Assembly (NCBI RefSeq): GCF_006716565.1
Contig: NZ_VFPG01000001.1
Coordinates: 3,038,001 to 3,102,000, forward strand
DNA length: 64,000 bases
Origin: Nocardia bhagyanarayanae
GTDB taxonomy: Bacteria > Actinomycetota > Actinomycetes > Mycobacteriales > Mycobacteriaceae
Direction: 5' to 3'
Position numbers and translations under genes: made by a program. This document shows, piece after piece, positions 3,804-51,967 of the stretch. The notes beneath the pieces were generated by a model. The model had not been told where the DNA came from, searched no databases, and saw only the letters and a program-made list of their open reading frames with translations. Position 1 is the stretch's first letter, and the number at the start of each line of letters is the position of its first letter.

Positions 3804-5546
3804 ATGCATTCCAACTTTGTCGCACACGTGCGAGGGCAGGTAGCCGCTTACGGCGACACCAGGTCGTACACCTATCTGCGGGAGGTCGGCCGGGAGCTGG
3901 TCGAGGAGGTCGCCACCTACCGGGAGCTGGACCGGGAGGCCAGGGCGCTGGCCGAGTGGCTGGCACGACGCGACGAGGCCGACCGGCCGGTGTTGCTGCT
4001 CTACCCGCCCGGCCTCGAGTTCCTGCGCGCCTTCCTCGGCTGCCTCTATGCCGGGGTGATCGCCGTACCCGCCCCCGCGCCGCACGACGCGCGCAGCACC
4101 CGGCGCGTGCTCGGCATGCTGAACGACGCGGGCGCCCGGCTGATTCTCACCACGGCCGAATTCCGCGAGCTGCTGGCCGCGTGGCTGCGCGACAGCGACG
4201 AATCGGGTGTCGCGGTCGCGGCCACCGACGAGCCGCTCGGCGATCCGGACGCGTGGGTCGTGCCCGCGCTGACCGCGGACTCCACCGCCTTCCTGCAGTA
4301 CACCTCGGGTTCCACCAGCGAGCCCAAGGGCGTTGTCGTCTCGCACGGCAACCTCGTGCACAACGAGGCCGCTATCGGCGCGGCGAGCTCCATGGACGAC
4401 GAAACGACCGTCGCCGGCTGGCTGCCGCACTTCCACGACATGGGACTGATCGGGATGCTGCTGCAGCCGCTGTTCGCGGGCGGCCGGTTGGTCTTCATGT
4501 CGCCGACGACCTTCCTGAAGCGCCCGGTCCGGCTGCTCGAGGCGGTCGATCGGTACCGCGCGCACATCACGGTGGCGCCGAACTTCGCCTACGAGCTGAT
4601 CGCTCGCCGGGTGACCGACGCACAGCTCGCGGGACTCGACCTGTCCACGCTGCGCGCGGTGTTGAACGGCGCGGAACCGGTCCGCGCCCGCACGCTCGAC
4701 GCGGTGATCGAGCGGCTCGGCCCCGCCGGATTCGCGCCCGACGCTTTCCTTCCCGTCTACGGCATGGCCGAGGTGACGCTGATGGCGACCGCGGCTCGGG
4801 TCGGGCATCCGCCGGTGTACCTCGACGTCGACACGGCGGAACTGGAACGTCATCGAATCGTCCCCGCCGACAATGGAACTCGCTTGGTGAGCTGCGGTAC
4901 GGCGGCGCCGGGTCTCGACATCCGGATCGTCGACCCCGCGACCCTGCGGACACTGCCGGACGGTGAGGTCGGCGAGATCTGGATCGGCGGACCCAGTGTG
5001 GCGCAGGGATATTGGAATCGGCCGGAGGATACGCGCGAGAGGTTCGCCGCCTACACCGAAGGCGCGGGGCCGTATCTGCGGACCGGCGATCTCGGCGCCC
5101 GCCACGAGGGTGAACTCTTCATCACCGGGCGGCTGAAGGACCTGATCATCATGAACGGCCGCAACCTGTATCCGCACGACATCGAGGAGGCCGTGCGCGA
5201 CGCCCATCCGGCCGTTGCCGACGCGCCCGGCGTCGTGCTGTCGATCGACGCGGGAGACCAGGAGCGACTGCTGGTCGTCCAAGGCGTGCGCACCGCCGCG
5301 CTGGGTGAGCTGCCTTCGGTCGAATTGTCCGCCCGGATCCGGGCGATGGTGTCGCGCGGTTTCGACCTGCCCGCGCCGAACGTGGTGCTGGTCGAGCATC
5401 GCGCGGTGCACCGCACGACCAGCGGCAAGGTGCAACGCAATTCGATGCGGTCCGCGTTCCTGGACAACACGGTCGACGGCGTGCTGCACGAGGAGATCGA
5501 ACCGTCCGTCCAGCGTCTGCGCGCCCGCGCTCTCGCCACCGTCTGA
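3804..5546 (+). CDS. Fatty acyl-AMP ligase (FAAL), loads a fatty acid onto the adjacent ACP
   Basis: 580-residue adenylate-forming enzyme. The phosphate-binding loop LQYTSGSTSEPKG lies near residue 165. It is followed by GWLPHFHDMGLIG, typical of FAAL rather than CoA ligases, then VYGMAEVTL, the YLRTGDLG hinge and TTSGKVQRN with the C-terminal Lys. FAALs make acyl-adenylates and hand the acyl group to an acyl carrier protein instead of CoA. The free ACP gene 35 bp downstream and the PKS after it support that role: this enzyme would supply the starter chain. AGGAG precedes the ATG. It is the first gene of an apparent three-gene operon. Confidence 0.9.
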   Translation: MHSNFVAHVRGQVAAYGDTRSYTYLREVGRELVEEVATYRELDREARALAEWLARRDEADRPVLLLYPPGLEFLRAFLGCLYAGVIAVPAPAPHDARSTRRVLGMLNDAGARLILTTAEFRELLAAWLRDSDESGVAVAATDEPLGDPDAWVVPALTADSTAFLQYTSGSTSEPKGVVVSHGNLVHNEAAIGAASSMDDETTVAGWLPHFHDMGLIGMLLQPLFAGGRLVFMSPTTFLKRPVRLLEAVDRYRAHITVAPNFAYELIARRVTDAQLAGLDLSTLRAVLNGAEPVRARTLDAVIERLGPAGFAPDAFLPVYGMAEVTLMATAARVGHPPVYLDVDTAELERHRIVPADNGTRLVSCGTAAPGLDIRIVDPATLRTLPDGEVGEIWIGGPSVAQGYWNRPEDTRERFAAYTEGAGPYLRTGDLGARHEGELFITGRLKDLIIMNGRNLYPHDIEEAVRDAHPAVADAPGVVLSIDAGDQERLLVVQGVRTAALGELPSVELSARIRAMVSRGFDLPAPNVVLVEHRAVHRTTSGKVQRNSMRSAFLDNTVDGVLHEEIEPSVQRLRARALATV

Positions 5547-5581
5547 CCGAAGCACCGACAAGACTCAGGAGATCACCGCAG

Positions 5582-5863
5582 ATGAGAACACTTGTGCTGG
5601 CCCAGCAGGGCGCCCTCGTCGCCGACTGGATCACCGCGCGGGTCGCCGACTACCTCGGCCGCTCGGCGCGCGATATCGATCCCACCCTTCCGCTGGCCGA
5701 GTTGGGCCTCGATTCGGTGTCCGCGGTGAACATCTGCGGCGAGATCGAGGACGAGTGGGATCTCGACCTGGACCCGACGATCGTGTTCGAGTACCCGACG
5801 ATCATCGACCTGGCCGTGTACATCACCGACCAGGTCGCCGACCGACTCGGGCTCGCCGCATGA
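5582..5863 (+). CDS. Free acyl carrier protein
   Basis: 93 residues with the carrier-protein helix-II motif LAELGLDSVSAV; Ser45 is the expected 4'-phosphopantetheine attachment site. Helix III (IVFEYPTIIDLAVYI) is also clear. AGGAG lies 9 bases before the ATG. Lying between the FAAL and the PKS, it most likely accepts the acyl chain from the FAAL and passes it to the KS domain. Its stop codon overlaps an ATGA at the head of a short repeat-like spacer (5860-5912). Confidence 0.92.
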   Translation: MRTLVLAQQGALVADWITARVADYLGRSARDIDPTLPLAELGLDSVSAVNICGEIEDEWDLDLDPTIVFEYPTIIDLAVYITDQVADRLGLAA

Positions 5864-5912
5864 GCGAACGAAGTGAGCGCATGCCGGAGGCGAGCGTCGG
5901 CGAGGTGCAGGC
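5860..5912 (+). repeat. Short GC-rich spacer with GAGCGAACGAAGTGAGCG motif
   Basis: The spacer between the ACP and PKS genes contains quasi-palindromic GAGCGAACGAAGTGAGCG followed by GCCGGAGGCGAGCG. If read from the overlapping ATG at 5860 it gives MSERSERMPEASVGEVQA. Motifs of this SERSE type recur at gene ends in many actinobacteria, so this looks like an inserted small repeat rather than a gene. Confidence 0.4.
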
Positions 5913-8900
5913 ATGAGCCGACGCACCGAGTGGATGACATGCGGGAAAGCCGCGCGGGCGACGGAGCCGAGTGACGCGATCGCGATCGTCGGCATCGACT
6001 GCCGCTTCCCGCAGGCGCCGGATGCGCGGGCGCTGTGGGCGCTGCTCATGGCGGGCGGAGACGCGATCGCGCAGGTTCCGGCCGAGCGTTGGAATGTGGA
6101 CGATTTCCACGATCCCGCCGGTGGGAGCGGCCGGGTCGACCACCGCACCGGCGGCTTCCTCGCCGACGCCGACGCGTTCGACAACGAGTTCTTCGGCATC
6201 GCGCCGCGTGAGGCCGAGGCGATGGATCCGCAGCAGCGGCTGCTGCTGCAGTCCGCGTGGCGGGCTTTCGAGGACGCCACGCTTGACCCGCGGCGGCAGG
6301 CGGGCTCGAACACCGGTGTGTTCGTCGGTGTCATGGCCAATGAATGGGCCACCGTGCACATGCGCGACTACGCGCGCATCACCCCGCAAATGGGTTCGGG
6401 CAACGGCTATTTCATGACGGCCAACCGGCTGTCCTATCAGCTCGACCTGACGGGACCGAGCATGGCGGTCGACACCGCGTGCTCGTCGTCGCTGGTCGCC
6501 GTCCATCAGGCCTGCGTCGCGCTGCGCGCCGGAGAGTGCGATCAGGCGCTCGCCGCGGGCGTCAATATCGCGGTGACCCCGGCGCTCAACGTCTTCTACA
6601 CGCAGGCGGGCCTCTCCGCGCCGGACGGTCGCTGCAAACCGTTCAGCGGGAAGGCCGACGGCATCGGCCGCGGCGAGGGCGTCGCGGTGCTCGTGCTGCG
6701 CAGGCTCGCGGACGCACAGGCGGATGGGCTGCCGATCTACGCTGTAATCAAGGGCAGTGCGGTGAACAACGACGGCCGCAGCAACGGGATCACCGCCCCG
6801 AACCGATGGGCGCAGCAGCAGGTCGTCGCCGAGGCGTACCGACGTGCGGGGGTCGACGCGGCGCAGGTCGCCTTCCTGGAGGCGCACGGCACCGGAACGG
6901 TGCTCGGCGACATGATCGAGGTCAAGGCGTTGGGCGCGGTGCACGCGGCGCGGCGCGAGCGCCCTTGTGCGCTTGGCTCGATCAAGGGCAATCTCGGCCA
7001 CACCGAGGGCGCCGCCGGGATCGCGGGATTGATCAAGGCGGCGTTGAGCCTGCACCACCGCGTGGTGCCGCCCACGAGGTACGCGGCGGACGAGAACGCG
7101 CGGCTGCGCATGGCCGAGCAGGGTCTGCGGCTGCTCGCCGAGCCGATGACATTGCCGGACGGCCGGATTCACGGTGCGGTCTCCAGCTTCGGCATGGGCG
7201 GCACCAACGCGCACATGGTGCTCGCGAGCGCTCCGCCTACGCCGCGCACGGTCGAGGCGGATGGCGGTGGCGTGCTCACGCTGTCGTCGAACGATCGTGA
7301 GGGGCTGCGGCGCAACGTTTTTCGGCTAGCGGAAGTCGTGGAGCGGGATTCCGTCGCGTTGAGCCGGTTGTGCTGGTCGAGCAACGAGGTGAAGTCCTCG
7401 GGCCGCCACCGCTTGTCGCTCGTGGTGCGGGATCGCGGCCGGGCGGTCGAGGCGCTGCGTGCCTGCGCCGACGACGCCGCACTCGAAACCTACTCCGGTG
7501 TCGCCCGACGACCGTCGATCGGCTGGTTGTTCACCGGCCAAGGCGCGCAGTATCCCGGCATGTCACGCGCGCTGCGCGAGGCGTCCCCGGCGTACCGGCG
7601 CGCACTCGCCGAGGTGGACGAGCGGATGACCGCGCACCTGCACCGATCGGTGGCCGAATTGCTGCTCGGCGACGACGAGATCGTGCACCGCACCGAGTTC
7701 GCGCAGCCCGCGATCTTCGCGGTCGAATACGCCATGGCCAGGGCGCTCACCGAACTCGGCGTCGAGCCCGCGTGGCTGGTCGGTCACAGCATCGGCGAGT
7801 TCGCCGCGGCCGCCGTCGCCGGGGTGTTCTCCCTCGACGACGCGTGTCGGCTCGTCGCCGCCCGCGGGCGACTCATGCAGCGACTGCCCGGCGGCGGCGC
7901 GATGCTCGCGGTCCGCGCGACGGCCGACGCGGTCGCCGAGCTGATCGCGGGAGAGCCCGACGTGGCGCTCGCCGCCGTCAACGGTCCGCGCGAGACCGTG
8001 CTGTCGGGTGCCGCCGAGTCGATCGCCCGTGTCGGCGCGGTGCTGACGGATCGCGGTGTCACCGTTCGCCCGCTGACCGTCTCGCATGCCTTCCACTCGC
8101 CGCTGATGGCGCCCATGCGTGACGAGTTCGCGCAGGTCGCGCGCGACTGCGCGTACAACCCGCCGAGCATCCCGATCTACTCGACGTTGCGCGGCCGCCT
8201 GCTCGGCGCCGACGATCCGATGGACGCCGAGTACTGGGTCGAACACATCGGCGCCACAGTGCGTTTCGCCGACGCGGCGACCGCCGCGCTGACCACCGAG
8301 CCGACGCATCTGATCGAAATCGGCCCGAAGCGCACGCTCGCACCGATGATCGGCCGGGCCCATCCCGGACTCTCGGTGCCGATGCTGACGCCCTGCCCGG
8401 GACCGCGGGCCACCGGCGACGAATTGGCGGACACGATCGCCGCGCTCTACCGCGACGGACTCGATCCGCACTGGGACGCGCTGTACGAACCCGCCGCCCG
8501 GGTCCGGCAGCGCGTCGGCGGATACGAGTTCGACACGAGCCACCGGTTCTGGACGCAGGTCGACGTGACGCCGACCGCTCCTGAAACAACGAACCCAGCA
8601 CCCGAAACCAGCACTTCCGCAAGGCAACACACCGAGGAAACCACCATGGATCAACTCATCGCCCTCTTCCGCGAGCAGGCCGCGGTGCTGGCGGCGGCCG
8701 CCAACGCGGAGGTGGCGACGCAGCCGACCCAGCCCCGCCTTCTCGGCGAGTCAGGGCGAGTCGGCGCGGGCATCGATGCGGCGGCCGTGGTGCGCGCCGA
8801 GGCCGCGCGAGTCAGCGGATTTCCGGTCGAAAAGCTGAAGGACCGCGAAACGATCTGCGGCGAAATGGGTTTCGACTCGATTATGACCGCCGACCTGTTC

Positions 8901-10298
8901 AGCGGTCTCGCGCGCAAAGTCCCGGGCCTCGTCATCGAGCCGAGTTGGTTCACGGAGGCGACGACTCTCGGTGACGTGATCGGGCTCGTCGCGTCGCACG
9001 TCGGCGGAACCGAAAGCGTCCCGGCAACAGTGCTTCCCGAAAGTGTCACGGCGAAAGCGATGCTCGACATACCGGATCGCTCCGACGTGGAGCCGCAGTA
9101 CCGCATCGCGGACTTCCCCGAAGTACAGGCGATCTCCGACCGCATCGACCTGGCCGAGAAGTCCGGCGTGTCCAACCCCTACTTCTTGATCAACGACGGA
9201 GTCACCCGGGACACGTCGGTCGTCGAAGGCCACGAGGTGCTGAACTTTTCCAGCTTCAACTACCTCGGCATGTCCGGGCATCCGGCCGTGACCGCCGCGG
9301 TGCAGGACGCGGTGGCGCGGTACGGCAGTTCCGTCTCGGCGAGCCGCCTCCTCTCGGGTGAGAAGACGATCCACGCCGAGCTGGAACAGGAGCTCGCCGC
9401 GCTGCTCGGCACCGAGGACGCGATCACGCTGACCAGCGGCCACGCCACCAATGTGACAGTCATCGGGCACGTCGTCGGTCCCGAGGACCTGATCGTCCAC
9501 GACAGCCTGGCCCACGACAGCATCTTGCAGGGCTGCAAGCTCTCCGGCGCCACCCGGCGGCCGTTCCCGCACAACGACCACTCCGCGCTGGACCGCATAC
9601 TCACCGACATCCGTGGCCGCTACCGGCGGGTCCTGATCGTGATCGAGGGCGTCTACAGCCAGGACGGCGACATCCCGAATCTGCCCGCGATCATCGAGGT
9701 CAAGAAGAAGCACAAGGCGTTGCTGATGATCGACGAGGCGCACAGCGTCGGCGTGCTCGGTGCCAGCGGCGGCGGCGTCGGCGAGTACTTCGGCGTCGAC
9801 CGTGCCGAGGTGGAGCTGTGGTCCGGGACCATGTCGAAGGCGTTCGCGGGTTGCGGCGGTTACGTCGCGGGCAGCCGGGAACTGATCCGCTTCCTGAAGT
9901 ACACCACCCCCGGATTCGTCTACAGCGTCGGCATCACTCCGGCCAACGCCGCCGCCTCGCTGGCGGCGCTGCGCCAGATGCGTTCGGAACCTGGAGTTTT
10001 CGATCGGCTGCGCGGTCTGTCGCGGATGTTCCTCGAACTCGCCGAGGAGGCGGGCATCGACACCGGCGACAGCCACGACACCCCGATCGTTCCGTGCATC
10101 ATCGGCGACTCGATGCGGACGCTCGCGCTGTCGAACGCTTTGCTGCGCAGGGGAATCAACGTCAACCCGATCCTGCACCCGGCCGTGCCGGAGGACAAAG
10201 CCCGGCTGCGGTTCTTCATCACCACATGCCATACCGAGGAGCAGATCCGCTACGCGGTGAAGGTGCTCGCCGAGGAACTCGCGATCTTGCGAGCGTGA
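5913..10298 (+). CDS. Polyketide synthase with C-terminal alpha-oxoamine synthase: KS-AT-ACP-AOAS
   Basis: 1461 residues. The ketosynthase (about 20-440) has Cys190 in DTACSSSLV, His325 in EAHGTGT and His363 in NLGHTEGAAG. The acyltransferase (about 535-830) has Ser626 in GHSIGEF and HAFH at 725-728, the malonyl-CoA signature. A low-complexity Thr/Pro linker leads to a carrier domain with Ser989 in GFDSI. Residues 1080-1461 form a PLP enzyme of the 5-aminolevulinate synthase/KBL family, with the DEAHSVGVLG cofactor motif and Lys1309 in SGTMSKAFAG for the Schiff base. KR, DH, ER and TE are absent. Expected chemistry: one malonyl extension of an acyl chain, then decarboxylative condensation with an amino acid to release an aminoketone. 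Confidence 0.93.
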   Translation: MSRRTEWMTCGKAARATEPSDAIAIVGIDCRFPQAPDARALWALLMAGGDAIAQVPAERWNVDDFHDPAGGSGRVDHRTGGFLADADAFDNEFFGIAPREAEAMDPQQRLLLQSAWRAFEDATLDPRRQAGSNTGVFVGVMANEWATVHMRDYARITPQMGSGNGYFMTANRLSYQLDLTGPSMAVDTACSSSLVAVHQACVALRAGECDQALAAGVNIAVTPALNVFYTQAGLSAPDGRCKPFSGKADGIGRGEGVAVLVLRRLADAQADGLPIYAVIKGSAVNNDGRSNGITAPNRWAQQQVVAEAYRRAGVDAAQVAFLEAHGTGTVLGDMIEVKALGAVHAARRERPCALGSIKGNLGHTEGAAGIAGLIKAALSLHHRVVPPTRYAADENARLRMAEQGLRLLAEPMTLPDGRIHGAVSSFGMGGTNAHMVLASAPPTPRTVEADGGGVLTLSSNDREGLRRNVFRLAEVVERDSVALSRLCWSSNEVKSSGRHRLSLVVRDRGRAVEALRACADDAALETYSGVARRPSIGWLFTGQGAQYPGMSRALREASPAYRRALAEVDERMTAHLHRSVAELLLGDDEIVHRTEFAQPAIFAVEYAMARALTELGVEPAWLVGHSIGEFAAAAVAGVFSLDDACRLVAARGRLMQRLPGGGAMLAVRATADAVAELIAGEPDVALAAVNGPRETVLSGAAESIARVGAVLTDRGVTVRPLTVSHAFHSPLMAPMRDEFAQVARDCAYNPPSIPIYSTLRGRLLGADDPMDAEYWVEHIGATVRFADAATAALTTEPTHLIEIGPKRTLAPMIGRAHPGLSVPMLTPCPGPRATGDELADTIAALYRDGLDPHWDALYEPAARVRQRVGGYEFDTSHRFWTQVDVTPTAPETTNPAPETSTSARQHTEETTMDQLIALFREQAAVLAAAANAEVATQPTQPRLLGESGRVGAGIDAAAVVRAEAARVSGFPVEKLKDRETICGEMGFDSIMTADLFSGLARKVPGLVIEPSWFTEATTLGDVIGLVASHVGGTESVPATVLPESVTAKAMLDIPDRSDVEPQYRIADFPEVQAISDRIDLAEKSGVSNPYFLINDGVTRDTSVVEGHEVLNFSSFNYLGMSGHPAVTAAVQDAVARYGSSVSASRLLSGEKTIHAELEQELAALLGTEDAITLTSGHATNVTVIGHVVGPEDLIVHDSLAHDSILQGCKLSGATRRPFPHNDHSALDRILTDIRGRYRRVLIVIEGVYSQDGDIPNLPAIIEVKKKHKALLMIDEAHSVGVLGASGGGVGEYFGVDRAEVELWSGTMSKAFAGCGGYVAGSRELIRFLKYTTPGFVYSVGITPANAAASLAALRQMRSEPGVFDRLRGLSRMFLELAEEAGIDTGDSHDTPIVPCIIGDSMRTLALSNALLRRGINVNPILHPAVPEDKARLRFFITTCHTEEQIRYAVKVLAEELAILRA
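8634..8648 (+). promoter_or_regulatory. Internal ribosome site and in-frame ATG within the PKS gene
   Basis: GAGGA at 8634-8638, 7 bases before an in-frame ATG (Met912), directly after the low-complexity linker and before an amphipathic helix (MDQLIALFREQAAVLAAAA). This looks like the start of a formerly separate ACP-AOAS gene that has become fused, or a second translation start that still yields a free ACP-AOAS protein. Confidence 0.45.
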
Positions 10299-12385: not shown

Positions 12386-13189
12386 ATTCGCGTCGAGAAA
12401 GACCGTCACGCCGGTGATGCGGGGGCCGCTCGCCTCGAATTCGACGAATGCCACGCCGTGCGACTCGCCGAGCCGCACGCTCGCGCTGACGGTGCGGCCC
12501 GCGGCGATCAGCTTGTCCCAGCGCACGGCGCGGGCGCGATTGGTGAACTCCTCGACCGAAATCGGGTTGCCCGCAGGGAATTCCACCACCGCGTGCTCGC
12601 CGAGCAGCGCGCGCACGCGGCCGATGTCGGTCGCGGCCGCCGCCTCGAACAGCTGGCGCGCGGCGCGTTTGCCCGGTCTGCCCACGCTCCGCAATGCCCG
12701 CATCATGCCCATCGCGCCGTCGACGCCGAGGTTCGCGACCAGTTGCGGGCCGAGTTTCGCGCCCGCGAGGAGCCCCGGCACCCCGGTTCGCAGCAGTCGC
12801 GCGATCATCGCCGGAAGTTCCCAGTGCGCCGCCAAGCGGGCGATCCGCCAGCCGTCGCTGGTGTCGACCAAGTCGTAGCGCAGGTGCATCGGCACGGTGA
12901 CGGTGGCACCGGTGGACATGGTCGTCTCGATGTGCAGGTCACGGACCACCGTCTGCCCGGCGACCAGGTCGCGGTCCACCCGGAACGCGATGGAGTTCGG
13001 GCCGATGAAGGTGTCGTAGAACCGCGCGATCGCCACGCGGCCGATGTGCGCGCGCGAGCCGACCGGGTCGTGTACCGCGGCATCGTCCGCGAACAGGCCG
13101 ACCCAGGCGGTCTTGTCGTGCGCGGCCACCGCGCGCGGCGACGCGTGAACGGCCGCCAGCAGGTGTTCGGCGGTCGGGTCCAGCGGCAT
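12380..13189 (-). CDS. Tandem NTF2/SnoaL-like protein, probable steroid or lipid enzyme
   Basis: 269 residues; ATG at 13189 with GGAGGA 8 bases ahead. Residues 5-135 form one NTF2-like unit (EHLLAAVHASPRAVAAHDKTAW..DDAAVHDPVG..ARFYDTFIGP) and about 180-265 look like a second (QLFEAAAATDIGRVRALL..). The fold includes ketosteroid isomerases and polyketide cyclases. It is divergent from a steroid 5-alpha-reductase-like gene, and a perfect KstR-type operator lies between them, so a part in steroid metabolism is likely. Catalytic residues cannot be assigned by eye. Confidence 0.7.
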   Translation of the reverse strand: MPLDPTAEHLLAAVHASPRAVAAHDKTAWVGLFADDAAVHDPVGSRAHIGRVAIARFYDTFIGPNSIAFRVDRDLVAGQTVVRDLHIETTMSTGATVTVPMHLRYDLVDTSDGWRIARLAAHWELPAMIARLLRTGVPGLLAGAKLGPQLVANLGVDGAMGMMRALRSVGRPGKRAARQLFEAAAATDIGRVRALLGEHAVVEFPAGNPISVEEFTNRARAVRWDKLIAAGRTVSASVRLGESHGVAFVEFEASGPRITGVTVFLDANL

Positions 13190-13300: not shown

Positions 13301-14092
13301 ATGGACTGGTACACCGGGAACGCCACCTACGACACCGTGCTCGCGATCGCCTTCGCCTTCGCGGCTTTCGTGCTGGTCGGCGGCCTGTTCGCGCAGAGTC
13401 CGTACGGGCGTTTCGCCTCGACGAAGGTCGGCTTCAACCTGAATCCCAAGCTGGGCTGGTGGTTGATGGAGCTGCCCGCCACCGTGGTGTTCGCGGTGTT
13501 CTACCTGAGCGGGCCGGATCGCTTCGAGCCGACGCCCCTGGTGCTCGCGTGCATCTGGCTGCTGCACTACGGCAATCGCGGCTGGTTCTTCCCGCTCTCG
13601 ATTCGGCAGGTGCCGGGCAAGCGCAGCAGTTTCAACATCTCCGTGCTCGCCGCGGGCGTCTTCGTGACCTCGCTGCACGGCTACCTCAACGGCGCGTTCT
13701 TCAGCCACGACTACAAGAACCAATACGGCGCCGACTGGCTCACCGACCCGCGTTTCCTGATCGGCCTCGTCGTGTACCTGTGCGGTTTCGGGCTGCTGGT
13801 GCGGTCCGAGGCGATCGTGCGCAACCTGCGCGACAAGAGCGATCCCGGCGCGACCGAATACCGCATTCCCTACGGCGGCGGCTTCCGTTTCGTGAGTAGT
13901 CCGGCCTATCTCGGGGAGTTGATCGCGTGGGCCGGGTTCGCACTGCTGACCTGGTCGTTGGCGGGTGTGGTGATCTTCCTGATCACGGCGGGGAACCTGG
14001 TGCCGCGCGCGTTCGCGACGCACCGCTGGTACAAGGAGAAGTTCGCCGACTACCCGGCCGAGCGGAAAGCGTTGATTCCCTACGTGATCTGA
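13301..14092 (+). CDS. 3-oxo-5-alpha-steroid 4-dehydrogenase (steroid 5-alpha-reductase) family protein
   Basis: 263-residue membrane protein with about six hydrophobic helices. The C-terminal domain has the family signature YRIPYGGGFRFVSSPAYLGE, then ITAGNLVPRAFATHRWYKEKF near the end, the NADPH-binding part of 5-alpha-reductases. LNPKLGWWLMELPA near residue 45 is also typical. These enzymes reduce the delta-4 double bond of 3-ketosteroids. AAGGA precedes the ATG. The KstR-type operator upstream links it to steroid catabolism. Confidence 0.85.
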   Translation: MDWYTGNATYDTVLAIAFAFAAFVLVGGLFAQSPYGRFASTKVGFNLNPKLGWWLMELPATVVFAVFYLSGPDRFEPTPLVLACIWLLHYGNRGWFFPLSIRQVPGKRSSFNISVLAAGVFVTSLHGYLNGAFFSHDYKNQYGADWLTDPRFLIGLVVYLCGFGLLVRSEAIVRNLRDKSDPGATEYRIPYGGGFRFVSSPAYLGELIAWAGFALLTWSLAGVVIFLITAGNLVPRAFATHRWYKEKFADYPAERKALIPYVI

Positions 14093-43457: not shown

Positions 43458-45113
43458 TCAGTTCTCGATCTCCATCTCGATCAACGGCTTGCGCAGCAGC
43501 TTGCCGGTGGCGTTGCGCGGCAGTTCGTCGAGGAAGATCACCTCGCGTGGCACCTTGTAGCGGGCCAGGTTCGCCTTGACGTAGTCCTTGATCTCCTGCG
43601 GATCGCGCTTGGAGTCCGGGCCGGGAACGACGAACGCGCGCAGCCGCTTGCCGTACTCGCGGTCGTCGACGCCGACCACGGCGGCCTCGAAGATGTCCTC
43701 GCGCCCGGCGATCAGGTTCTCCACCTCGAGCGGGAAGACGTTCTCGCCGCCGGAGACGATCATGTCGTCGTCGCGGCCATCGATGTAGAGCAGGCCGTCG
43801 GCGTCGAAGTGCCCGACGTCGCCGCTGGACATCATGCCGTCGACGATCTCCTTGGTGCGGCCGTCGGTGTAGCCGGTGAACGCGAATCCGTTGTCCACGA
43901 AGATGGTTCCGGTGACGTTCGGCTCGGTGATCGGCTTGCGGTTCTCGTCGAGCAGCACGATGCGGATGCCGACCGGCGGGCGGCCCGCGGTGGTCGGCGA
44001 CTTGCGCAGGTCTTCCGGGGTGGCCACCGTCATCACGGCGCATTCGGTGGAGCCGTACAGGTTGTAGAGGCTGTCGTTGAAGTGGTCCAGCGTGCGGGTG
44101 ACCACGTCGGGCGCGATGGCCGAACCCGCCGCGAAGATCACCTTGATGCTGCGCACGTCGTACTTGGCGAGCACGTCGTCGCCGAGATCGAGGATGCGCT
44201 GCAGCATGGTCGGCACGACGACCAGCGAGTCCGCGCGGTACTTCTCGATGTTGGCCAGCGTCTGCTCGGGGTTGAAGCGGCGCTGCTGGAAGACGACCCG
44301 GTTGCCGAGCGCCAGACCGAGGGTGAACTGGGAAAGGCCGGTGCCGTGGAAGATCGGCGCGGCCATGATCATCGTGCCGTTGGCGGGCAGCGGCACCCGA
44401 TCGACGAACTGCGCCGAGGCGAACGGGCTGACCCGATCGCGCGGCGCGCCCTTCGGGGTGCCGGTGGTGCCGCTGGTCAGGATGACCATGCCGCCGGGCT
44501 TGGCCGGGGCGGGCAGCGGCGCGGTGGACCGGCCCGCGGACACCGTTTCGACGGTCGGGATCGACGGGTCGGCGTTGTCCTTCTCGTCCACCCAGGTGAG
44601 GATGCGCGGGATCTCGGCGGGAATGGCGCTCATCAGGTCGAGGAACTCGCTGTCGTGCAGCACGGCCTTGACCTTCTCGCGCGTGGCGACGTCGGCGAAC
44701 TGCGGCTTGGCGAAGCCGGTGTTCATCAGCACCGCGCGCACACCGAGCTTGCCGGCGGCCAGCAGGCTGAGCACCATGCCGCGGTGATCGCGGGCCAGCA
44801 CCGCGACGACGTCGCCAGCCCCGATGCCCTGAGCTTCCAGCCCGCGCGCGAAGGCGTTGGACTGGTCGTTGAGCTGGCCGAAGGTCAGCTCGCCGCGCTC
44901 GTCCACGATGGCGGCCGCGTGCGGCCTGGTCTGCGCGGCGTGCATGACGACACCGGCGAAGGGACCGAACTTCAGCACGTTGAACGCCGAGCGTGCCGCG
45001 TGGTCCGGACGCAGCGGGTTGAACAGACCCCGCTTCACCATGACGTTCACGCCGAGTGCGAGATCGCCGGCCTTGCGAACGGAACCGCCGAGCGCGGGAA
45101 AGGACAAAGACAT
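43458..45113 (-). CDS. Long-chain acyl-CoA synthetase (FadD12-like)
   Basis: 551 residues from ATG 45113, with GGAAGG 9 bases ahead. ANL-family motifs: VILTSGTTGTPKGAPR, YGSTECAVMT, SSGDVGHFDADG, DDDMIVSGGENVFPLEVE and the C-terminal Lys in LPRNATGKLLRKPL. The N-terminus (SVRKAGDLALGVNVMVKRGL) matches FadD12-type proteins. About half its residues agree with the ligase immediately upstream on the same strand, so the pair arose by duplication. Activates fatty acids for degradation or lipid building. Confidence 0.9.
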   Translation of the reverse strand: MSLSFPALGGSVRKAGDLALGVNVMVKRGLFNPLRPDHAARSAFNVLKFGPFAGVVMHAAQTRPHAAAIVDERGELTFGQLNDQSNAFARGLEAQGIGAGDVVAVLARDHRGMVLSLLAAGKLGVRAVLMNTGFAKPQFADVATREKVKAVLHDSEFLDLMSAIPAEIPRILTWVDEKDNADPSIPTVETVSAGRSTAPLPAPAKPGGMVILTSGTTGTPKGAPRDRVSPFASAQFVDRVPLPANGTMIMAAPIFHGTGLSQFTLGLALGNRVVFQQRRFNPEQTLANIEKYRADSLVVVPTMLQRILDLGDDVLAKYDVRSIKVIFAAGSAIAPDVVTRTLDHFNDSLYNLYGSTECAVMTVATPEDLRKSPTTAGRPPVGIRIVLLDENRKPITEPNVTGTIFVDNGFAFTGYTDGRTKEIVDGMMSSGDVGHFDADGLLYIDGRDDDMIVSGGENVFPLEVENLIAGREDIFEAAVVGVDDREYGKRLRAFVVPGPDSKRDPQEIKDYVKANLARYKVPREVIFLDELPRNATGKLLRKPLIEMEIEN

Positions 45114-45265
45114 AAGGGACAACCTTCCGCGGTCCAGCCACCGGGACTCGGGGTGGTGTGGACCGCAACATCGAGATCCAGTGCTGGCGCTAACAATAGC
45201 AAGCAACTGTTACCGAGTGTGTCATCCATCTCACCGCGCGGAGGTCTTGTCTTTCGAGAACCTCG

Positions 45266-45312
45266 CGGGTCGCGAATCGGATTGTGCCGCAAGGGCTCCG
45301 ATTCGCGACCCG
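45266..45312. terminator. Hairpin terminator after the second acyl-CoA synthetase
   Basis: Perfect 16-bp arms (CGGGTCGCGAATCGGA at 45266-45281, complement at 45297-45312) with a 15-base loop, starting 12 bp past the stop of the minus-strand gene at 45325. No T-run. It separates the two ligase genes, so they are probably independent transcription units. Confidence 0.65.
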
Positions 45313-45324
45313 GATCGGTCACGA

Positions 45325-46944
45325 TCAGATCTGGTACTCCACGAGCACCCGGCGCAGCAGCTTGCCGGTGGGGTTGCGCGGCAGATCGTCGAGGAAGACG
45401 ACCTCGCGCGGCACCTTGTACCTGGCCAGGTTGTCCTTCACGTAGGCCTTGAGCTCCTCGCCGTCGGGCGTGTGGCCGGGCTCCGGGACGATGAAGGCGC
45501 GCAGCCGCTTGCCGAACTCCACATCGTCCACGCCGATCACCGCGGCGTCGAACACGTCGGGGCGCTCGAGCAGCAGGTTCTCCACCTCCTGCGGGAAGAC
45601 GTTCTCGCCGCCGGAAACGATCATGTCGTCGTCACGGCCGTCGACCATCAGCAGGCCGTTGTCGTCGAAGTGGCCGACGTCGCCGCTGGACATGTAGCCG
45701 TCGATGATCTGCTTGTTGCGGCCGTCGGTGTAGCCCTCGAACGGCGCGCCGCTGCGCACGAAGATGCGCGCGGTGACGTTGCGGTCGGTGACCAGCTGGT
45801 CGTTGTCGTCGTAGAGCCGCACGTCGCAGGTGATCGGCGGGCGACCGACCGTGCCGGGGGCCTGCGCCAGCTCTTCCGGCTTGGCGATGGTGGCGATCGC
45901 GACCTCGGTCGAGCCGTACAGGTTGTGCAGCACCGGACCGAAGACCTCGGCGGCGCGCACGCACAGCTCGGGCGAGAGCGCGGAACCGGCGAGCACGATG
46001 GCCTTCAGCGAGGAGGTGTCGTACTTGGCGCGCACCTCCTCGGGCAGCTCTACCATGCGGTGCAGCATGGTCGGCACCGCGACCAGCATGTCGGCCTTGT
46101 GGTCGGAGACCATCTTCAGCGTCGCCTCGGCGTCGAAGCGGCGGCGCATCACGATCTTGTTGGACAGCACGGTGCCGACCAACCAGGTGCCGAGGCCGGT
46201 GCTGTGGAAGATCGGCGAGACGATCACCATCGTGCCGAACTTCTGGAACGGAATGCGGTCGACGAACTGCGCGGTGGCCATCGGCGTCACCTTGGTGCGC
46301 GGCGCGCCCTTGGGCAGGCCGGTGGTGCCGCTGGTCAGGATGATGAAGCCGCCGGCCTTGCTAGGCGCGGGCAGCGGCTCGGTGGAGTTCGCGGCGATCA
46401 GGTCGTCGAAGGTCTGCGCGCCCTGCGGCAGCTGGGCGCCCTCGTCGACCCACGTCAGGTAGCGCGGCAGGTCGGCGGGCAGCGCGTCGAGCAGCCCGAG
46501 GAACTCGCTGTCGTGCAGCACCGCCTTCACCTTCTCGCGGGCGCACACCTCGGCGAACTGCGGCTTGGCGAAGCCGGTGTTCATCAACGCGATCCGGGCG
46601 CCTAGTTTGCCCGCGGCGATCATCGACATGATCAGGCCGCGGTGGTCGCGGGCCAGCACGCCGATCACGGTGCCCTCGGTGATACCGGCCGATTGCAGGC
46701 CGCGCGCGACGGCGGTGGACTGCTCGTCCAGCTCGCGATAGGTCAGTTCGCCGCGTTCGTCCGCGAGGGCGACCTGGTCCGGCGCGATCCGCGCGGAATG
46801 CCGCACCAGGGCCGCCTGCGGGCCGAACGCCTTGGTCTCGCGCATGGTGCGCAGTGTCTCCAGCGGCGCCTTCGGATCGCTGACTCCACGAGACCGCAAC
46901 ACCCCAAGGGCCTTCACCGTTTCCAGCGCACGCGCCATGCTCAC
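45325..46944 (-). CDS. Acyl-CoA synthetase (FadD type), duplicate of the neighbouring gene
   Basis: 539 residues from GTG 46944, with GGAGGA 7 bases ahead; an ATG six bases further in is the alternative. Motifs: FIILTSGTTGLPKGAPR, YGSTEVAIAT, SSGDVGHFDDNG, DDDMIVSGGENVFPQEVE and LPRNPTGKLLRRVL with the catalytic Lys. Closely related to the ligase at 43458 through the whole core. Acts on fatty acids; chain-length preference cannot be told. Confidence 0.9.
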   Translation of the reverse strand: MSMARALETVKALGVLRSRGVSDPKAPLETLRTMRETKAFGPQAALVRHSARIAPDQVALADERGELTYRELDEQSTAVARGLQSAGITEGTVIGVLARDHRGLIMSMIAAGKLGARIALMNTGFAKPQFAEVCAREKVKAVLHDSEFLGLLDALPADLPRYLTWVDEGAQLPQGAQTFDDLIAANSTEPLPAPSKAGGFIILTSGTTGLPKGAPRTKVTPMATAQFVDRIPFQKFGTMVIVSPIFHSTGLGTWLVGTVLSNKIVMRRRFDAEATLKMVSDHKADMLVAVPTMLHRMVELPEEVRAKYDTSSLKAIVLAGSALSPELCVRAAEVFGPVLHNLYGSTEVAIATIAKPEELAQAPGTVGRPPITCDVRLYDDNDQLVTDRNVTARIFVRSGAPFEGYTDGRNKQIIDGYMSSGDVGHFDDNGLLMVDGRDDDMIVSGGENVFPQEVENLLLERPDVFDAAVIGVDDVEFGKRLRAFIVPEPGHTPDGEELKAYVKDNLARYKVPREVVFLDDLPRNPTGKLLRRVLVEYQI

Positions 46945-47185
46945 CTCGAACTCCTCCACTGAACACTCGCGTCGGCACTCGACCTCGCGATCGGCTATGT
47001 GGATGCCTACCGTAGCAGCGAACGTGTCATGGGTCACATGCAAAGGCGGCAAAGCGGACAATGGTCCTGTGTGACGTGGCATCGCCGGCGCGGGTCTCTC
47101 CGGGCGGCGCCAGTGGCTCGCTCCCGCGGCCTCGCCACCCGCCCGAGCCGACGCACGACACCCGCCGCCCGGAGGGGACACCGAC

Positions 47186-48166
47186 ATGTCGAGAAATCTG
47201 ACCCAACTGGAATTGCTGATCGAGCTGGAGCCGATCGTCGAGCGCGAACTGAATCGGCACCTCGCGACGGCCAAGAACTGGCACCCGCACGACTACGTGC
47301 CCTGGGGTGAGGGCCGCAACTACGCCGCGATGGGCGGCGCCGACTGGGAACCGGAACAGTCGCGGCTGTCCGAAGTGGCCAGGGCGGCCATGGTGGTCAA
47401 CTTGCTCACCGAGGACAACTTGCCCTCCTACCACCGCGAGATCGCCGAGAGCTTCTCCCGGGACGGGGCATGGGGCACCTGGGTCGGCCGCTGGACCGCC
47501 GAGGAGAACCGGCACGGCATCACGATGCGTGACTATCTCGTCGTCACCAGGGGAGTGGATCCGGTCGCGCTGGAACGCGCCCGCATGGTGCACATGACCA
47601 AGGGCGCCGACACGCCCGCCGCCTGGGACGACGAGACCAACGCGCTCTACGGCTTGGCGTACGTGACCTTCCAGGAGCTCGCCACTCGAGTGAGTCACCG
47701 CAACACCGGCAAGGTCTGCGACGACCCGATCGCGGACAAGATGCTGCAACGCATCGCCGCGGACGAGAACCTGCACATGGTCTTCTACCGCAACATGTGC
47801 GAAGCGGCCCTCGAGCTCACCCCCGACCAGGCGCTGGAGGCGATCTCGATGATCGTGCGGAGGTTCCGGATGCCGGGTGTCGGCATGCCGGACTTCCGTC
47901 GAAAGGCGGCGCTCATCGCCAAACACGGCATCTACGATCCGCGCCAGCATCTGGACGACGTGGTGATGCCGGTGTTGCGGAAGTGGAACATCTTCGACCG
48001 CACCGGCTTCGGACCGCCCGGCGAGCAGTGCCGGGACGAGCTCGGCGCGTTCGTCGAGCAGTTGGATCGGGATGCGGCGCGGTTCGAGGAACGGCGCGAT
48101 CGGATATTGATGGCCGAGACGGCTCGCCGATTGGCCGCCGAGACCGGAGATTCCGGACGAGGTTGA
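47186..48166 (+). CDS. Acyl-ACP desaturase (DesA-like)
   Basis: 326 residues. A ferritin-like di-iron protein: the ligand motifs LLTEDNLPSYH, EENRHGITMRDY (ExxH) and ADENLHMVFYRNM (second ExxH) have the spacing of plant-type stearoyl-ACP desaturases and of mycobacterial DesA1 (Rv0824c). It introduces a double bond into an ACP-bound acyl chain, a step in mycolic acid or unsaturated fatty-acid synthesis. GGAGGGG precedes the ATG. It is divergent from the acyl-CoA ligase gene. Confidence 0.93.
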   Translation: MSRNLTQLELLIELEPIVERELNRHLATAKNWHPHDYVPWGEGRNYAAMGGADWEPEQSRLSEVARAAMVVNLLTEDNLPSYHREIAESFSRDGAWGTWVGRWTAEENRHGITMRDYLVVTRGVDPVALERARMVHMTKGADTPAAWDDETNALYGLAYVTFQELATRVSHRNTGKVCDDPIADKMLQRIAADENLHMVFYRNMCEAALELTPDQALEAISMIVRRFRMPGVGMPDFRRKAALIAKHGIYDPRQHLDDVVMPVLRKWNIFDRTGFGPPGEQCRDELGAFVEQLDRDAARFEERRDRILMAETARRLAAETGDSGRG

Positions 48167-48401
48167 GCCGTGACGACTTCCCCTCGTGGCGGAAGCAGCT
48201 CGGAGACCGGCGGCCCGAGGTGCCGGGCGGGCTCGAGTGGTAACGCCCGGTGCGGCGCTGGTTCGAGTCGTCAGGCCCGTCGAGATCGTAAGTCTCTGCG
48301 GCGCTGGGTCGTTCATCCTGTCGCGCGGCGGGGATGCGTGTGACGGGGCGAGGCGACCGGTTCGCCGCGGCGGCGTGGTGGCCGCCGCGACGAATCGCGG
48401 G

Positions 48402-49043
48402 TCAGTTGTAGACCGCGCCCATCGAGGGGATGGAGACGGTGCCGCGCTGGTACTGGTAGCCGTCCGGGTTGGCGTCGCTGACCGGGACCGACCAGCGGTG
48501 CCACAGGGTTCCGTACACCGCGGAGACGATCATGCCGGGGCCGAGGTCGAGCGCCCTGGAACGGATGGTGGTGTCGACCGGAACGTCGTTGTGCTCGTAG
48601 AGCACCTCGGTGCCGCTGCGTCCGTTGGACAGGTTGACCCACAGCGCTTCCATCTTGGCGCCGCCCTGGTTCGGCGAGATGGTGCCTGGTCCGCCGAAGA
48701 AGCCGAGGCGGAAACCGTCGACGCCGAGCGCGATGCCCGACCCGTATACGCCGGGGCCCTGGCCGCGGCCGATGTCGGACTGCGCCGGAATCTGGAACGG
48801 CTGGGCGGGCAGCGCGACCTTGCTCTTGGCGGGCAACCGGTCCCGCTCGGCGAGGAGCCGATCGATCGCCTCCTCCGCCATCGGATTACCTTCGGCGGCC
48901 TCCCGCAGTTTCTGCACCGCGATGCCCCAGTCCACGGTCGGGACCTCGGGCTCCGCCGCCGCGCTTCCGCTGAACACCGTTGCCAACACGGCCGAAACGG
49001 CCGCCGCCGCGGTGAGATGACGCTTGAAACTCAGTCGACGCAT
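48402..49043 (-). CDS. Secreted protein of unknown function
   Basis: 213 residues with a clear signal peptide (about 1-30, ending SAAA) and AAGGAGA 7 bases before ATG 49043. The mature part begins with a short charged helix (VQKLREAAEGNPMAEEAIDRLL) and continues as a beta-rich, glycine-rich domain (GPGVYGSGIALGVDGFRLGFFGGPG, MIVSAVYGTLWHRW). No cysteine, lipobox or enzyme motif. Family not recognised, but the composition is that of nocardial envelope or secreted proteins. Confidence 0.75.
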   Translation of the reverse strand: MRRLSFKRHLTAAAAVSAVLATVFSGSAAAEPEVPTVDWGIAVQKLREAAEGNPMAEEAIDRLLAERDRLPAKSKVALPAQPFQIPAQSDIGRGQGPGVYGSGIALGVDGFRLGFFGGPGTISPNQGGAKMEALWVNLSNGRSGTEVLYEHNDVPVDTTIRSRALDLGPGMIVSAVYGTLWHRWSVPVSDANPDGYQYQRGTVSIPSMGAVYN

Positions 49044-49219
49044 AACCAATCTCCTTGCCAGAGTCCTTGGTACAGCCTTTACTGAAATTCGTCCGCTACC
49101 TTCGCGGTATCTGCGAGACCCTAGCCGATCCCCCAAACCCCCGACAGCCCACCCCGCGCACCGGAAAAATCGCGGGGTCGGCCGTCCGGGCCGCCCTGCG
49201 GAAAGCCCTGGGGCATAAA

Positions 49220-49257
49220 GAAACCGGTGCGGGGCCACCCAACCCCGCACCGGTTTC
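49220..49257 (-). terminator. Terminator of the acyl-CoA dehydrogenase operon
   Basis: Perfect 15-bp stem (49220-49234 with 49243-49257), 8-base loop, 16 bp past the stop at 49274. On the minus strand it is followed by TTTAT, giving a canonical intrinsic terminator. Confidence 0.8.
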
Positions 49258-49273
49258 GTTGTGGGTCAGCGCG

Positions 49274-50497: not shown

Positions 50498-50531
50498 TGT
50501 TGAAGGTCTCCTGAAGGAAGGAACGAGCCGA

Positions 50532-51923: not shown

Positions 51924-51967
51924 CACCTGTTTTCTCGGGTGGGTGGGTGAGGTCTTGTCCCAGCTAT

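What the first reader, a model, noticed from the sequence alone, without database searches (positions are those of the whole stretch)
3804..10298. Compact FAAL - free ACP - PKS/alpha-oxoamine synthase cluster: candidate route to a long-chain aminoketone (sphingoid-like) lipid
Seen: a FAAL, a carrier protein and one KS-AT-ACP-AOAS megasynthase in a row, with all catalytic residues intact (Cys190, His325, His363, Ser626, Ser989, Lys1309) and a malonyl-type AT (HAFH). Known: FAALs prime ACPs with fatty acids; AOAS domains (as in SxtA, or standalone serine palmitoyltransferase, KBL and ALAS) release acyl thioesters by decarboxylative condensation with an amino acid. Inference: the three genes turn a fatty acid into a C2-extended beta-keto chain and release a 2-amino-ketone related to 3-ketosphinganine. 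There is no reductase, thioesterase or exporter in the block. I do not recall a characterised Nocardia product of this architecture.
Basis: partly seen in the sequence, partly recalled or inferred. Interest (0 to 1): 0.8.

Follow-up and report, generated by a model that had tools for sequence, protein, structure and literature searches.

The report
Split RedL-like lipid synthase in Nocardia
Three neighbouring Nocardia genes look like a split version of RedL, the enzyme that makes the fatty pyrrole half of the red prodiginine pigments, so they probably make a fatty nitrogen-ring lipid rather than a sphingosine-like one; the product itself is not known.

Summary
In detail: a FAAL (3804-5546), a free ACP (5582-5863) and a KS-AT-ACP-AOAS protein (5913-10298) in a row, catalytic residues intact. 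They are conserved: 44 of 147 genomes of the genus carry the ACP-AOAS end; FAAL and ACP stand beside it in 26 of 26 Nocardia relatives whose surroundings were read.

The product inference needs correcting. Domain for domain the block matches RedL, found here in two prodiginine-type loci. RedL makes 4-keto-2-undecylpyrroline from a fatty acid, malonyl and glycine (PMC11188435, PMC12654105, passages). A beta-ketoacyl thioester plus an amino acid gives a 1-amino-2,4-dione, which should close to a pyrrolinone or hydroxypyrrole, not a 3-ketosphinganine analogue.

New here: three genes instead of one protein; an AOAS branch apart from RedL; Ser where RedL has Thr at a site that tunes amino-acid choice (Ser also in the serine-using RedN type). 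I predict an alkyl-pyrrolinone/3-hydroxypyrrole lipid from serine or alanine. All chemistry is inferred; no product was shown. New variant of a known kind.

The parts
3804..5546 (+). fatty acyl-AMP ligase (FAAL), 580 aa: activates a free fatty acid and loads the ACP (function inferred)
   Evidence: beside the PKS in 26 of 26 Nocardia loci read
5582..5863 (+). free acyl carrier protein, 93 aa, Ser45 in GLDSV; best PDB match is the N-terminal ACP of Pks13
   Evidence: 4e-13
5913..10298 (+). KS-AT-ACP-AOAS protein, 1461 aa
   Evidence: aligned to relatives
5973..7079 (+). ketosynthase (residues 21-389), Cys190/His325/His363
   Evidence: 49% identical to the KS of RedL in L160
7524..8342 (+). acyltransferase (residues 538-810), GHSIG Ser626 and HAFH, read as malonyl-type (motif rule recalled)
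   Evidence: complete HAFH in 33 of 34 rows
8787..8987 (+). second acyl carrier domain (residues 959-1025), Ser989
9234..10268 (+). alpha-oxoamine synthase domain (residues 1108-1452), PLP lysine Lys1309, His1201, Asp1274, His1277
9342..9344 (+). codon of Ser1144, equivalent to Val79 of ThAOS, a determinant of amino-acid choice; Thr in the RedL rows, Ser in the RedN rows
   Evidence: alignments; role of the site from PMC11906848 (passages)

Best explanation
The three genes form a split RedL-type assembly line. The FAAL adenylates a fatty acid and loads it on the free ACP; the KS takes the acyl chain and extends it once with malonyl (AT) on the second ACP; with no reducing domain the chain stays a beta-ketoacyl thioester; the AOAS condenses it, with loss of CO2, with an amino acid, most likely serine or alanine, and releases a 1-amino-2,4-dione. 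This closes by itself to a 5-alkyl-pyrrolin-3-one / 5-alkyl-3-hydroxypyrrole carrying CH2OH (serine), CH3 (alanine) or H (glycine). Shown: gene order, domains, catalytic residues, conservation, domain-by-domain match to RedL, the Ser/Thr difference. Inferred: every reaction step, the amino acid, chain length and ring closure.
For: Collinear match to RedL of L160: FAAL 42%, ACP 39%, KS 49%, AT 43%, ACP 37%, AOAS 53%. L050 and L160 are prodiginine-type loci: in L050 an AOAS protein, an AMP-ligase, the RedL-like protein, a thioesterase, a methyltransferase, a PPDK_N/PEP-utiliser protein and a KS; in L160 counterparts of the AOAS, RedL, thioesterase and PPDK proteins. The Red names are mine, from recall and the pathway text of PMC11188435. 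RedL chemistry: glycine plus beta-ketomyristoyl thioester gives 4-keto-2-undecylpyrroline; PigH/RedN: serine plus a pyrrole beta-ketothioester gives the hydroxypyrrole HBM (PMC11188435 passage). AOAS tree: the RedL rows are the nearest rows of known type, next to the 111 rows that hold the window; RedN, KBL, ThAOS and plant SPT lie farther off (quick tree, midpoint root). Specificity site: Ser in 111 of 121 rows with the window, Thr in both RedL rows, Ser in both RedN rows (their glycine and serine use is assumed from homology). A stand-alone thioesterase follows the PKS in 5 relatives of the block (L033, L036, L079, L085, L164), as in the two red loci; a reductase family (N11) related to the C-terminal reductase of L160 RedL stands beside this AOAS clade in 7 loci.
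Against: No product is known. No RedK-like gene is in the block, and no Epimerase- or SDR-type domain was found in the 30 further window ORFs (17-64 kb) scanned with Pfam; the two homologues of the N11 reductase in the genome are unlinked and 27-29% identical. Ser at the site does not exclude glycine: ThAOS V79S still uses glycine, alanine and serine (PMC11906848). The N11-RedK link may be no more than shared superfamily (Pfam Epimerase); L050's own C-terminal domain matches N11 only marginally. In 24 of the 26 Nocardia loci no member of the thioesterase family was seen (clustering; not every neighbour was scanned with Pfam). The window's AOAS is not in the RedL branch, and the branch that separates them has only 83% support.
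Confidence: 0.62

Rival explanations
1. One reading: a sphingoid-like long-chain 2-aminoketone is the end product (stable, reduced elsewhere to an amino alcohol), comparable with SgaAB of Pseudomonas fluorescens.
For: PKS plus AOS makes sphinganines in P. fluorescens MYb115 (PMC12134224, section 8 and passages). Ser1144 is the residue of SPT at that site. Plant SPT LCB2a is the best PDB match of the AOAS by a small margin over KBL (228.7 against 225.3 bits).
Against: The PKS has no KR, DH or ER, and a sphinganine-type chain needs the beta-keto group reduced (recalled chemistry). Of the enzymes compared, the closest collinear one is RedL. A PKS with KS-AT-DH-ER-KR-ACP followed by a separate AOAS ORF, the SgaAB-like design, lies elsewhere in the same genome.
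Confidence: 0.15
2. Glycine-using RedL analogue: the product is a plain 4-keto-2-alkylpyrroline, perhaps reduced to a 2-alkylpyrrole by an unlinked reductase.
For: RedL uses glycine (PMC11188435 passage); ThAOS V79S still accepts glycine (PMC11906848 passage); two unlinked reductase homologues exist.
Against: Both RedL rows have Thr at the site; the window and its relatives have Ser in 34 of 34 rows.
Confidence: 0.15
3. Mycolate-like Claisen line: the AT takes a long 2-carboxyacyl-CoA as in Pks13, so a branched beta-keto lipid is released by the AOAS.
For: The free ACP is closest in the PDB to the N-terminal ACP of Pks13, and FadD32 is among the best solved relatives of the FAAL.
Against: HAFH motif, read as malonyl-type (rule recalled); the whole PKS scores better against CurL and modular PKSs than against Pks13; no carboxylase domain among the window ORFs scanned.
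Confidence: 0.06

Closest known systems
RedL of the prodiginine (red) pathway
   Same: FAAL/A, ACP, KS, AT, ACP, AOAS in the same order, each 37-53% identical to RedL in L160; free fatty acid start, one malonyl extension, release with an amino acid (PMC11188435, PMC12654105, passages)
   Different: RedL is one protein, here three; RedL rows have Thr at the specificity site, here Ser; L160 RedL carries a C-terminal reductase; no tripyrrole genes near the block
PigH/RedN
   Same: AOAS acting on a beta-ketothioester; Ser at the specificity site in both RedN rows; serine gives a hydroxypyrrole methanol (PMC11188435 passage)
   Different: AOAS only 36-38% identical; no FAAL or KS-AT of its own
FadD32-Pks13 (mycolic acid condensation)
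   Same: FAAL loading an ACP ahead of KS-AT-ACP (recalled); ACP similarity
   Different: Pks13 is one protein, ends in a thioesterase and uses long carboxyacyl units (recalled)
SgaAB of Pseudomonas fluorescens MYb115
   Same: PKS plus AOS giving an amino lipid (PMC12134224, section 8 and passages)
   Different: iterative PKS (its reducing domains are inferred from the product), separate serine-using AOS; product sphinganine
A-CP-PLP2 proteins of Planctomycetota (table in PMC3870968; 28 of 80 loci)
   Same: FAAL, ACP and an AOAS of the same clade (55-61% identity)
   Different: no KS-AT, so no extension expected

Membership tests
RedL-type synthase | FAAL-ACP-KS-AT-ACP-AOAS domain order, no reducing domain before release | tested here: met
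   (as three proteins)
RedL-type synthase | AOAS in the RedL branch | tested here: not met
   the two RedL rows form their own branch (SH-aLRT 99) next to the 111 rows with the window (83); quick tree
RedL-type synthase | Thr at the ThAOS Val79 site, as in the RedL rows | tested here: not met
   Ser1144
RedL-type synthase | glycine as substrate and a 4-keto-2-alkylpyrroline as product | not testable with these tools
   needs enzymology
Prodiginine cluster | RedN-, RedM-, RedH-like genes in the same locus | tested here: not met
   no second AOAS and no PPDK_N domain among 11 neighbouring ORFs and 30 further window ORFs to 64 kb; the two other AMP-ligases at 43-47 kb were not studied
FAAL | closer to FAAL than to CoA ligases | tested here: met
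alpha-oxoamine synthase | PLP lysine and active-site His/Asp/His/Arg | tested here: met
   Lys1309, His1201, Asp1274, His1277, Arg1433 in 121 of 121 rows; PLP binding itself untested
Serine palmitoyltransferase / sphingolipid route | acyl chain used without a beta-keto group | tested here: inconclusive
   KS-AT residues intact and no reducing domain argue against; activity untested
Serine palmitoyltransferase / sphingolipid route | ketosphinganine reductase (short-chain dehydrogenase) nearby | tested here: not met
   none among 11 neighbouring and 30 further window ORFs; a PF02544 reductase-like gene at 13301-14092 is of another family

The most novel reading that the evidence does not exclude
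About 30% of Nocardia species, with Rhodococcus, Antrihabitans and others, make an undescribed class of lipids: long-chain 5-alkyl-3-hydroxypyrroles (2-hydroxymethyl from serine or 2-methyl from alanine), a fatty counterpart of the hydroxybipyrrole of prodiginines, made by a three-gene line in which RedL-type chemistry runs with serine or alanine instead of glycine.
Probability: 0.35. Interest if true: 0.68.

Novelty: new variant of a known kind. Interest (0 to 1): 0.48.

Why it matters
It gives a small, testable target: three proteins that should turn a fatty acid, malonyl-CoA and an amino acid into a ring lipid, present in 44 of 147 sampled genomes of the genus, with no product named in the papers searched. 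It also ties together a broad clade of AOAS enzymes, many of them FAAL-fed (actinobacteria, planctomycetes, myxobacteria, cyanobacteria, Paenibacillus), in which presence or absence of a KS-AT module should decide between ring lipids and sphingoid-type aminoketones.

Tried and rejected
Considered and set aside: (1) sphingoid end product, because nothing in the block reduces the beta-keto group. (2) A RedK homologue inside the block: none. The N11 reductase was compared with the C-terminal domain of L050 RedL (only a marginal match) and then, after fetching L160, gave E 6.8e-16 to the C-terminal domain of L160 RedL; the link rests on one locus and a large superfamily. (3) A shared neighbour as a clue: neighbours differ between loci (a carboxylesterase downstream in 11 of 26 Nocardia loci, an MFS/MarR pair upstream in 8 of 26, one member of each checked with Pfam); neither family was seen beside the window's block. 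(4) A partner elsewhere in the window: 30 ORFs between 17 and 64 kb scanned with Pfam show a terminal oxidase, beta-lactamase-fold protein, FMO, GGDEF, symporter, two AMP-ligases, a desaturase, acyl-CoA dehydrogenases, division and other genes, with no link seen; smaller ORFs were not scanned. (5) Papers naming a product: searches found none; PMC3870968 lists a Nocardia brasiliensis A-CP-Luc-PLP2 protein, another design; PMC11481915 (siderochelin, passages) uses a different PLP enzyme; the FAAL review PMC11837247 has no mention of prodiginines or RedL (term search); the Rhodococcus survey PMC5550956 gave nothing on AOAS (term search). MIBiG could not be searched. Structure prediction was not used.

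Rows dropped: AOAS domains with under 280 matched query residues were left out before the tree. Three pairs of rows are identical and are probably the same genomes under unnamed and named records (L035/L098, L043/L081, L055/L082). The tree is quick, SH-aLRT only, midpoint-rooted; the long rows (plant SPT, KBL, ThAOS, RedN) are unsure.

The odds did not change.
Full report
WHAT IS THERE. Pfam and NCBIfam read them as a fatty acyl-AMP ligase, a free acyl carrier protein and a protein with KS, AT, ACP and an Aminotran_1_2 domain of the BioF/KBL/SPT kind; no KR, DH, ER, MT or TE domain is found. The best NCBIfam match of the KS-AT part is a PKS family that ends in an SDR (NF045894), of which the window protein has only the first 909 of 1515 positions. 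The FAAL's best solved relatives include FadD32, FadD23 and FadD28; CoA ligases come much later. The free ACP is closest, among solved structures, to the N-terminal ACP of Pks13. The AOAS domain matches plant SPT subunit LCB2a, KBL and ThAOS best, then bacterial SPT, ALAS and BioF, with small differences.

IS IT REAL AND CONSERVED. The window lies in G000:C1:3038001-3102000. The nearest named protein is from Nocardia amikacinitolerans (91% over the ACP-AOAS part). That part is found at E <= 1e-150 in 44 of 147 genomes of the genus at least 90% complete, own genome included, and at E <= 1e-90 in 18 of 394 genomes drawn from the class. In a search of 148 relatives at E <= 1e-70, 60 genomes had a match; 27 (own included, all labelled same genus) match at E < 1e-200 and are of the long PKS type, the other 33 only at 38-45% identity. 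I read about 20 kb around 26 Nocardia relatives: FAAL and ACP are next to the PKS in 26 of 26. Each active-site residue is kept in 33 or 34 of 34 rows, window included; L033 has a broken KS, L038 has Asp at position 725 of the AT motif, L083 has Pro at 989. dN/dS between the window and its nearest relative, one pair only, is about 0.20 for the PKS, 0.21 for the FAAL, 0.15 for the ACP and 0.13 for the AOAS part (ratios of the values). The block sits in different neighbourhoods in different species; in four loci it follows a hisF-like gene of a his-trp region, and in three of these four the next gene is of one family, identified in L049 as phosphoribosyl-AMP cyclohydrolase. A patchy block with changing neighbours is what one expects of a specialised-metabolite or lipid cluster (inference).

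SURROUNDINGS. Of 11 neighbouring ORFs in 0.9-16.2 kb scanned, those with a domain are a PBP-like protein upstream, and downstream a secretory lipase (- strand), a SnoaL-like domain (about 12863-13141, - strand), a PF02544 steroid 5-alpha-reductase-like gene (13301-14092, +) and a protein with a sub-cut-off ACT match. The lipase and PF02544 families are shared with the two nearest relatives only (L031, L032). Thirty further ORFs to 64 kb show no thioesterase above the Pfam cut-off, no Epimerase or SDR, no PPTase and no second AOAS.

WHAT IT MATCHES. Two of the relatives found by the AOAS search, L050 (another family of the order) and L160 (another family of the class), turned out to be prodiginine-type loci. 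L050 has in a row an AOAS protein, an AMP-ligase, a 2489-aa protein with FAAL, ACP, KS, AT, ACP and AOAS, a thioesterase, a methyltransferase, a PPDK_N/PEP-utiliser protein and a KS. L160 has counterparts of the AOAS, RedL, thioesterase and PPDK proteins, and its RedL-like protein has AMP-binding, ACP, KS, AT, Aminotran_1_2 and a C-terminal Epimerase-type reductase, with the second ACP seen by BLAST. I name these RedN, RedM, RedL, RedJ, RedI and RedH from recall and from the pathway text in PMC11188435. Against L160 RedL the window's domains are collinear and identical to 42% (FAAL), 39% (ACP), 49% (KS), 43% (AT), 37% (ACP) and 53% (AOAS). So the block is like a RedL cut into three genes without the reductase.

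WHAT RedL DOES. In the passages I read, dodecanoic acid is converted by RedL into 4-keto-2-undecylpyrroline (PMC12654105), by extension to a beta-ketomyristoyl thioester, PLP-dependent condensation with glycine and cyclisation; RedK then makes 2-undecylpyrrole (PMC11188435). In the other half of the pathway PigH/RedN joins serine to a pyrrole beta-ketothioester to give 4-hydroxy-2,2'-bipyrrole-5-methanol (same passage). Both are the reaction expected here: amino acid plus beta-ketothioester gives a 1-amino-2,4-dione that closes to a five-membered ring.

WHICH AMINO ACID. PMC11906848 (passages) shows that Val79 of ThAOS is an important determinant of amino-acid choice; the site is Val in KBL, Ser in AONS and S. 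paucimobilis SPT, Thr in ALAS. In the window it is Ser1144. Among 121 AOAS rows it is Ser in 111, Ala in 4, Thr in 3 and Val in 3; both RedL rows (glycine, by homology) have Thr and both RedN rows (serine, by homology) have Ser. All 34 block rows have Ser. This favours serine or alanine, but ThAOS V79S still uses glycine, so it is not proof.

PHYLOGENY. In a quick maximum-likelihood tree the window's AOAS sits with those of Nocardia, Rhodococcus, Antrihabitans, Mycobacterium intermedium and a Solirubrobacteraceae MAG (SH-aLRT 98); the sister group (joint support 99) holds proteins of Streptomyces, Pseudonocardiaceae and others. Farther out are planctomycete, myxobacterial and cyanobacterial AOAS domains, a few mycobacterial and other actinobacterial ones, and that of Paenibacillus; RedL is next (its own branch 99; the branch that separates it from the 111 rows with the window 83). 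RedN, KBL, ThAOS and plant SPT lie outside, on long branches whose place is unsure. So by anatomy the block works like RedL; by AOAS branch and specificity residue it is not a RedL.

WIDER FAMILY. The design was already listed as A-CP-PLP2 for Blastopirellula marina in PMC3870968 (table), and Spt-like proteins are reported from 138 Planctomycetota MAGs of the Black Sea (PMC11334938, passage; whether they are these proteins was not checked). A cyanobacterial MAG has FAAL, ACP-AOAS and a short-chain dehydrogenase in a row (L140), an order that would suit a sphingoid base. Paenibacillus tritici has FAAL, ACP-KS-AT, ACP-AOAS, an Epimerase-type reductase and a phosphopantetheinyl transferase in a row (L143). 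The same reductase family (N11) stands before a KS-AOAS protein in 6 Streptomyces, Amycolatopsis and Sciscionella loci (one checked with Pfam). A profile of the 7 N11 proteins matches the C-terminal domain of L160 RedL at 6.8e-16, which suggests, but does not prove, RedK-like ketone reduction.

RIVALS. SgaAB of Pseudomonas fluorescens shows that PKS plus AOS can make sphinganines (PMC12134224, section 8 and passages). That PKS is described as iterative, and the AOS is a separate protein that strongly prefers serine. A locus of like design, KS-AT-DH-ER-KR-ACP followed by a separate AOAS ORF, is in this very genome, far from the window; if this Nocardia makes a sphingoid base, that locus is the better candidate, although its AOAS has Thr at the site. 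A Pks13-like carboxyacyl extender is unlikely given HAFH.

NOVELTY. The architecture is known (RedL; A-CP-KS-AT-PLP2 in PMC3870968). New are the three-gene form spread through Nocardia and relatives, its separate AOAS branch, and the Ser residue. No paper in the held library, by the searches, names a product; subscription papers and MIBiG were not searchable. I rate it a new variant of a known kind, interest 0.48.

Noticed in passing
G000:C1 about 5151260-5159180 (L060:3369-11290): Same genome: a reducing PKS (KS-AT-DH-ER-KR-ACP, 2170 aa) followed by a separate AOAS ORF, a design like the sphinganine-making SgaAB; its AOAS has Thr at the specificity site.
   Followed up: partly
L059:5263-17880: In another Nocardia (G077) a PKS of the same family and an AOAS stand next to FG-GAP/ASPIC-UnbV, weakly RnfD-like and DUF1702 proteins, a trio I recall from enediyne clusters.
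   Followed up: no
L099, L100, L104, L107 and 24 more of L078-L157: FAAL and AOAS in one ORF without KS-AT in 28 of 80 loci, all titled as Planctomycetota: a candidate ACP-dependent route to sphingoid-type aminoketones.
   Followed up: partly
L140:7817-12171: Cyanobacterial MAG with FAAL, ACP-AOAS and short-chain dehydrogenase in a row.
   Followed up: no
L086, L087, L089, L090, L091, L093, L094, L096, L097, L113: KS-AOAS genes of Streptomyces and other actinobacteria, with no FAAL seen, lie beside or near a family of large proteins (N3) in these 10 loci; the one checked (L090) is an MMPL exporter.
   Followed up: no
L049, L051, L056, L057: The FAAL-ACP-PKS block sits in a his-trp region, right after a hisF-like gene.
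   Followed up: partly
L033:7992-14427: The G072 copy of the block has a PKS ORF of only 1098 aa without intact KS residues: a broken or misassembled copy.
   Followed up: no
window 13301-14092 (+): A PF02544 steroid 5-alpha-reductase-like gene 3 kb downstream of the block, shared with the two nearest relatives only; no reason found to tie it to the block, but not excluded.
   Followed up: no
window 43458-51926: Two AMP-ligases, a fatty acid desaturase and two acyl-CoA dehydrogenases lie close together, a second lipid-related group in the window.
   Followed up: no
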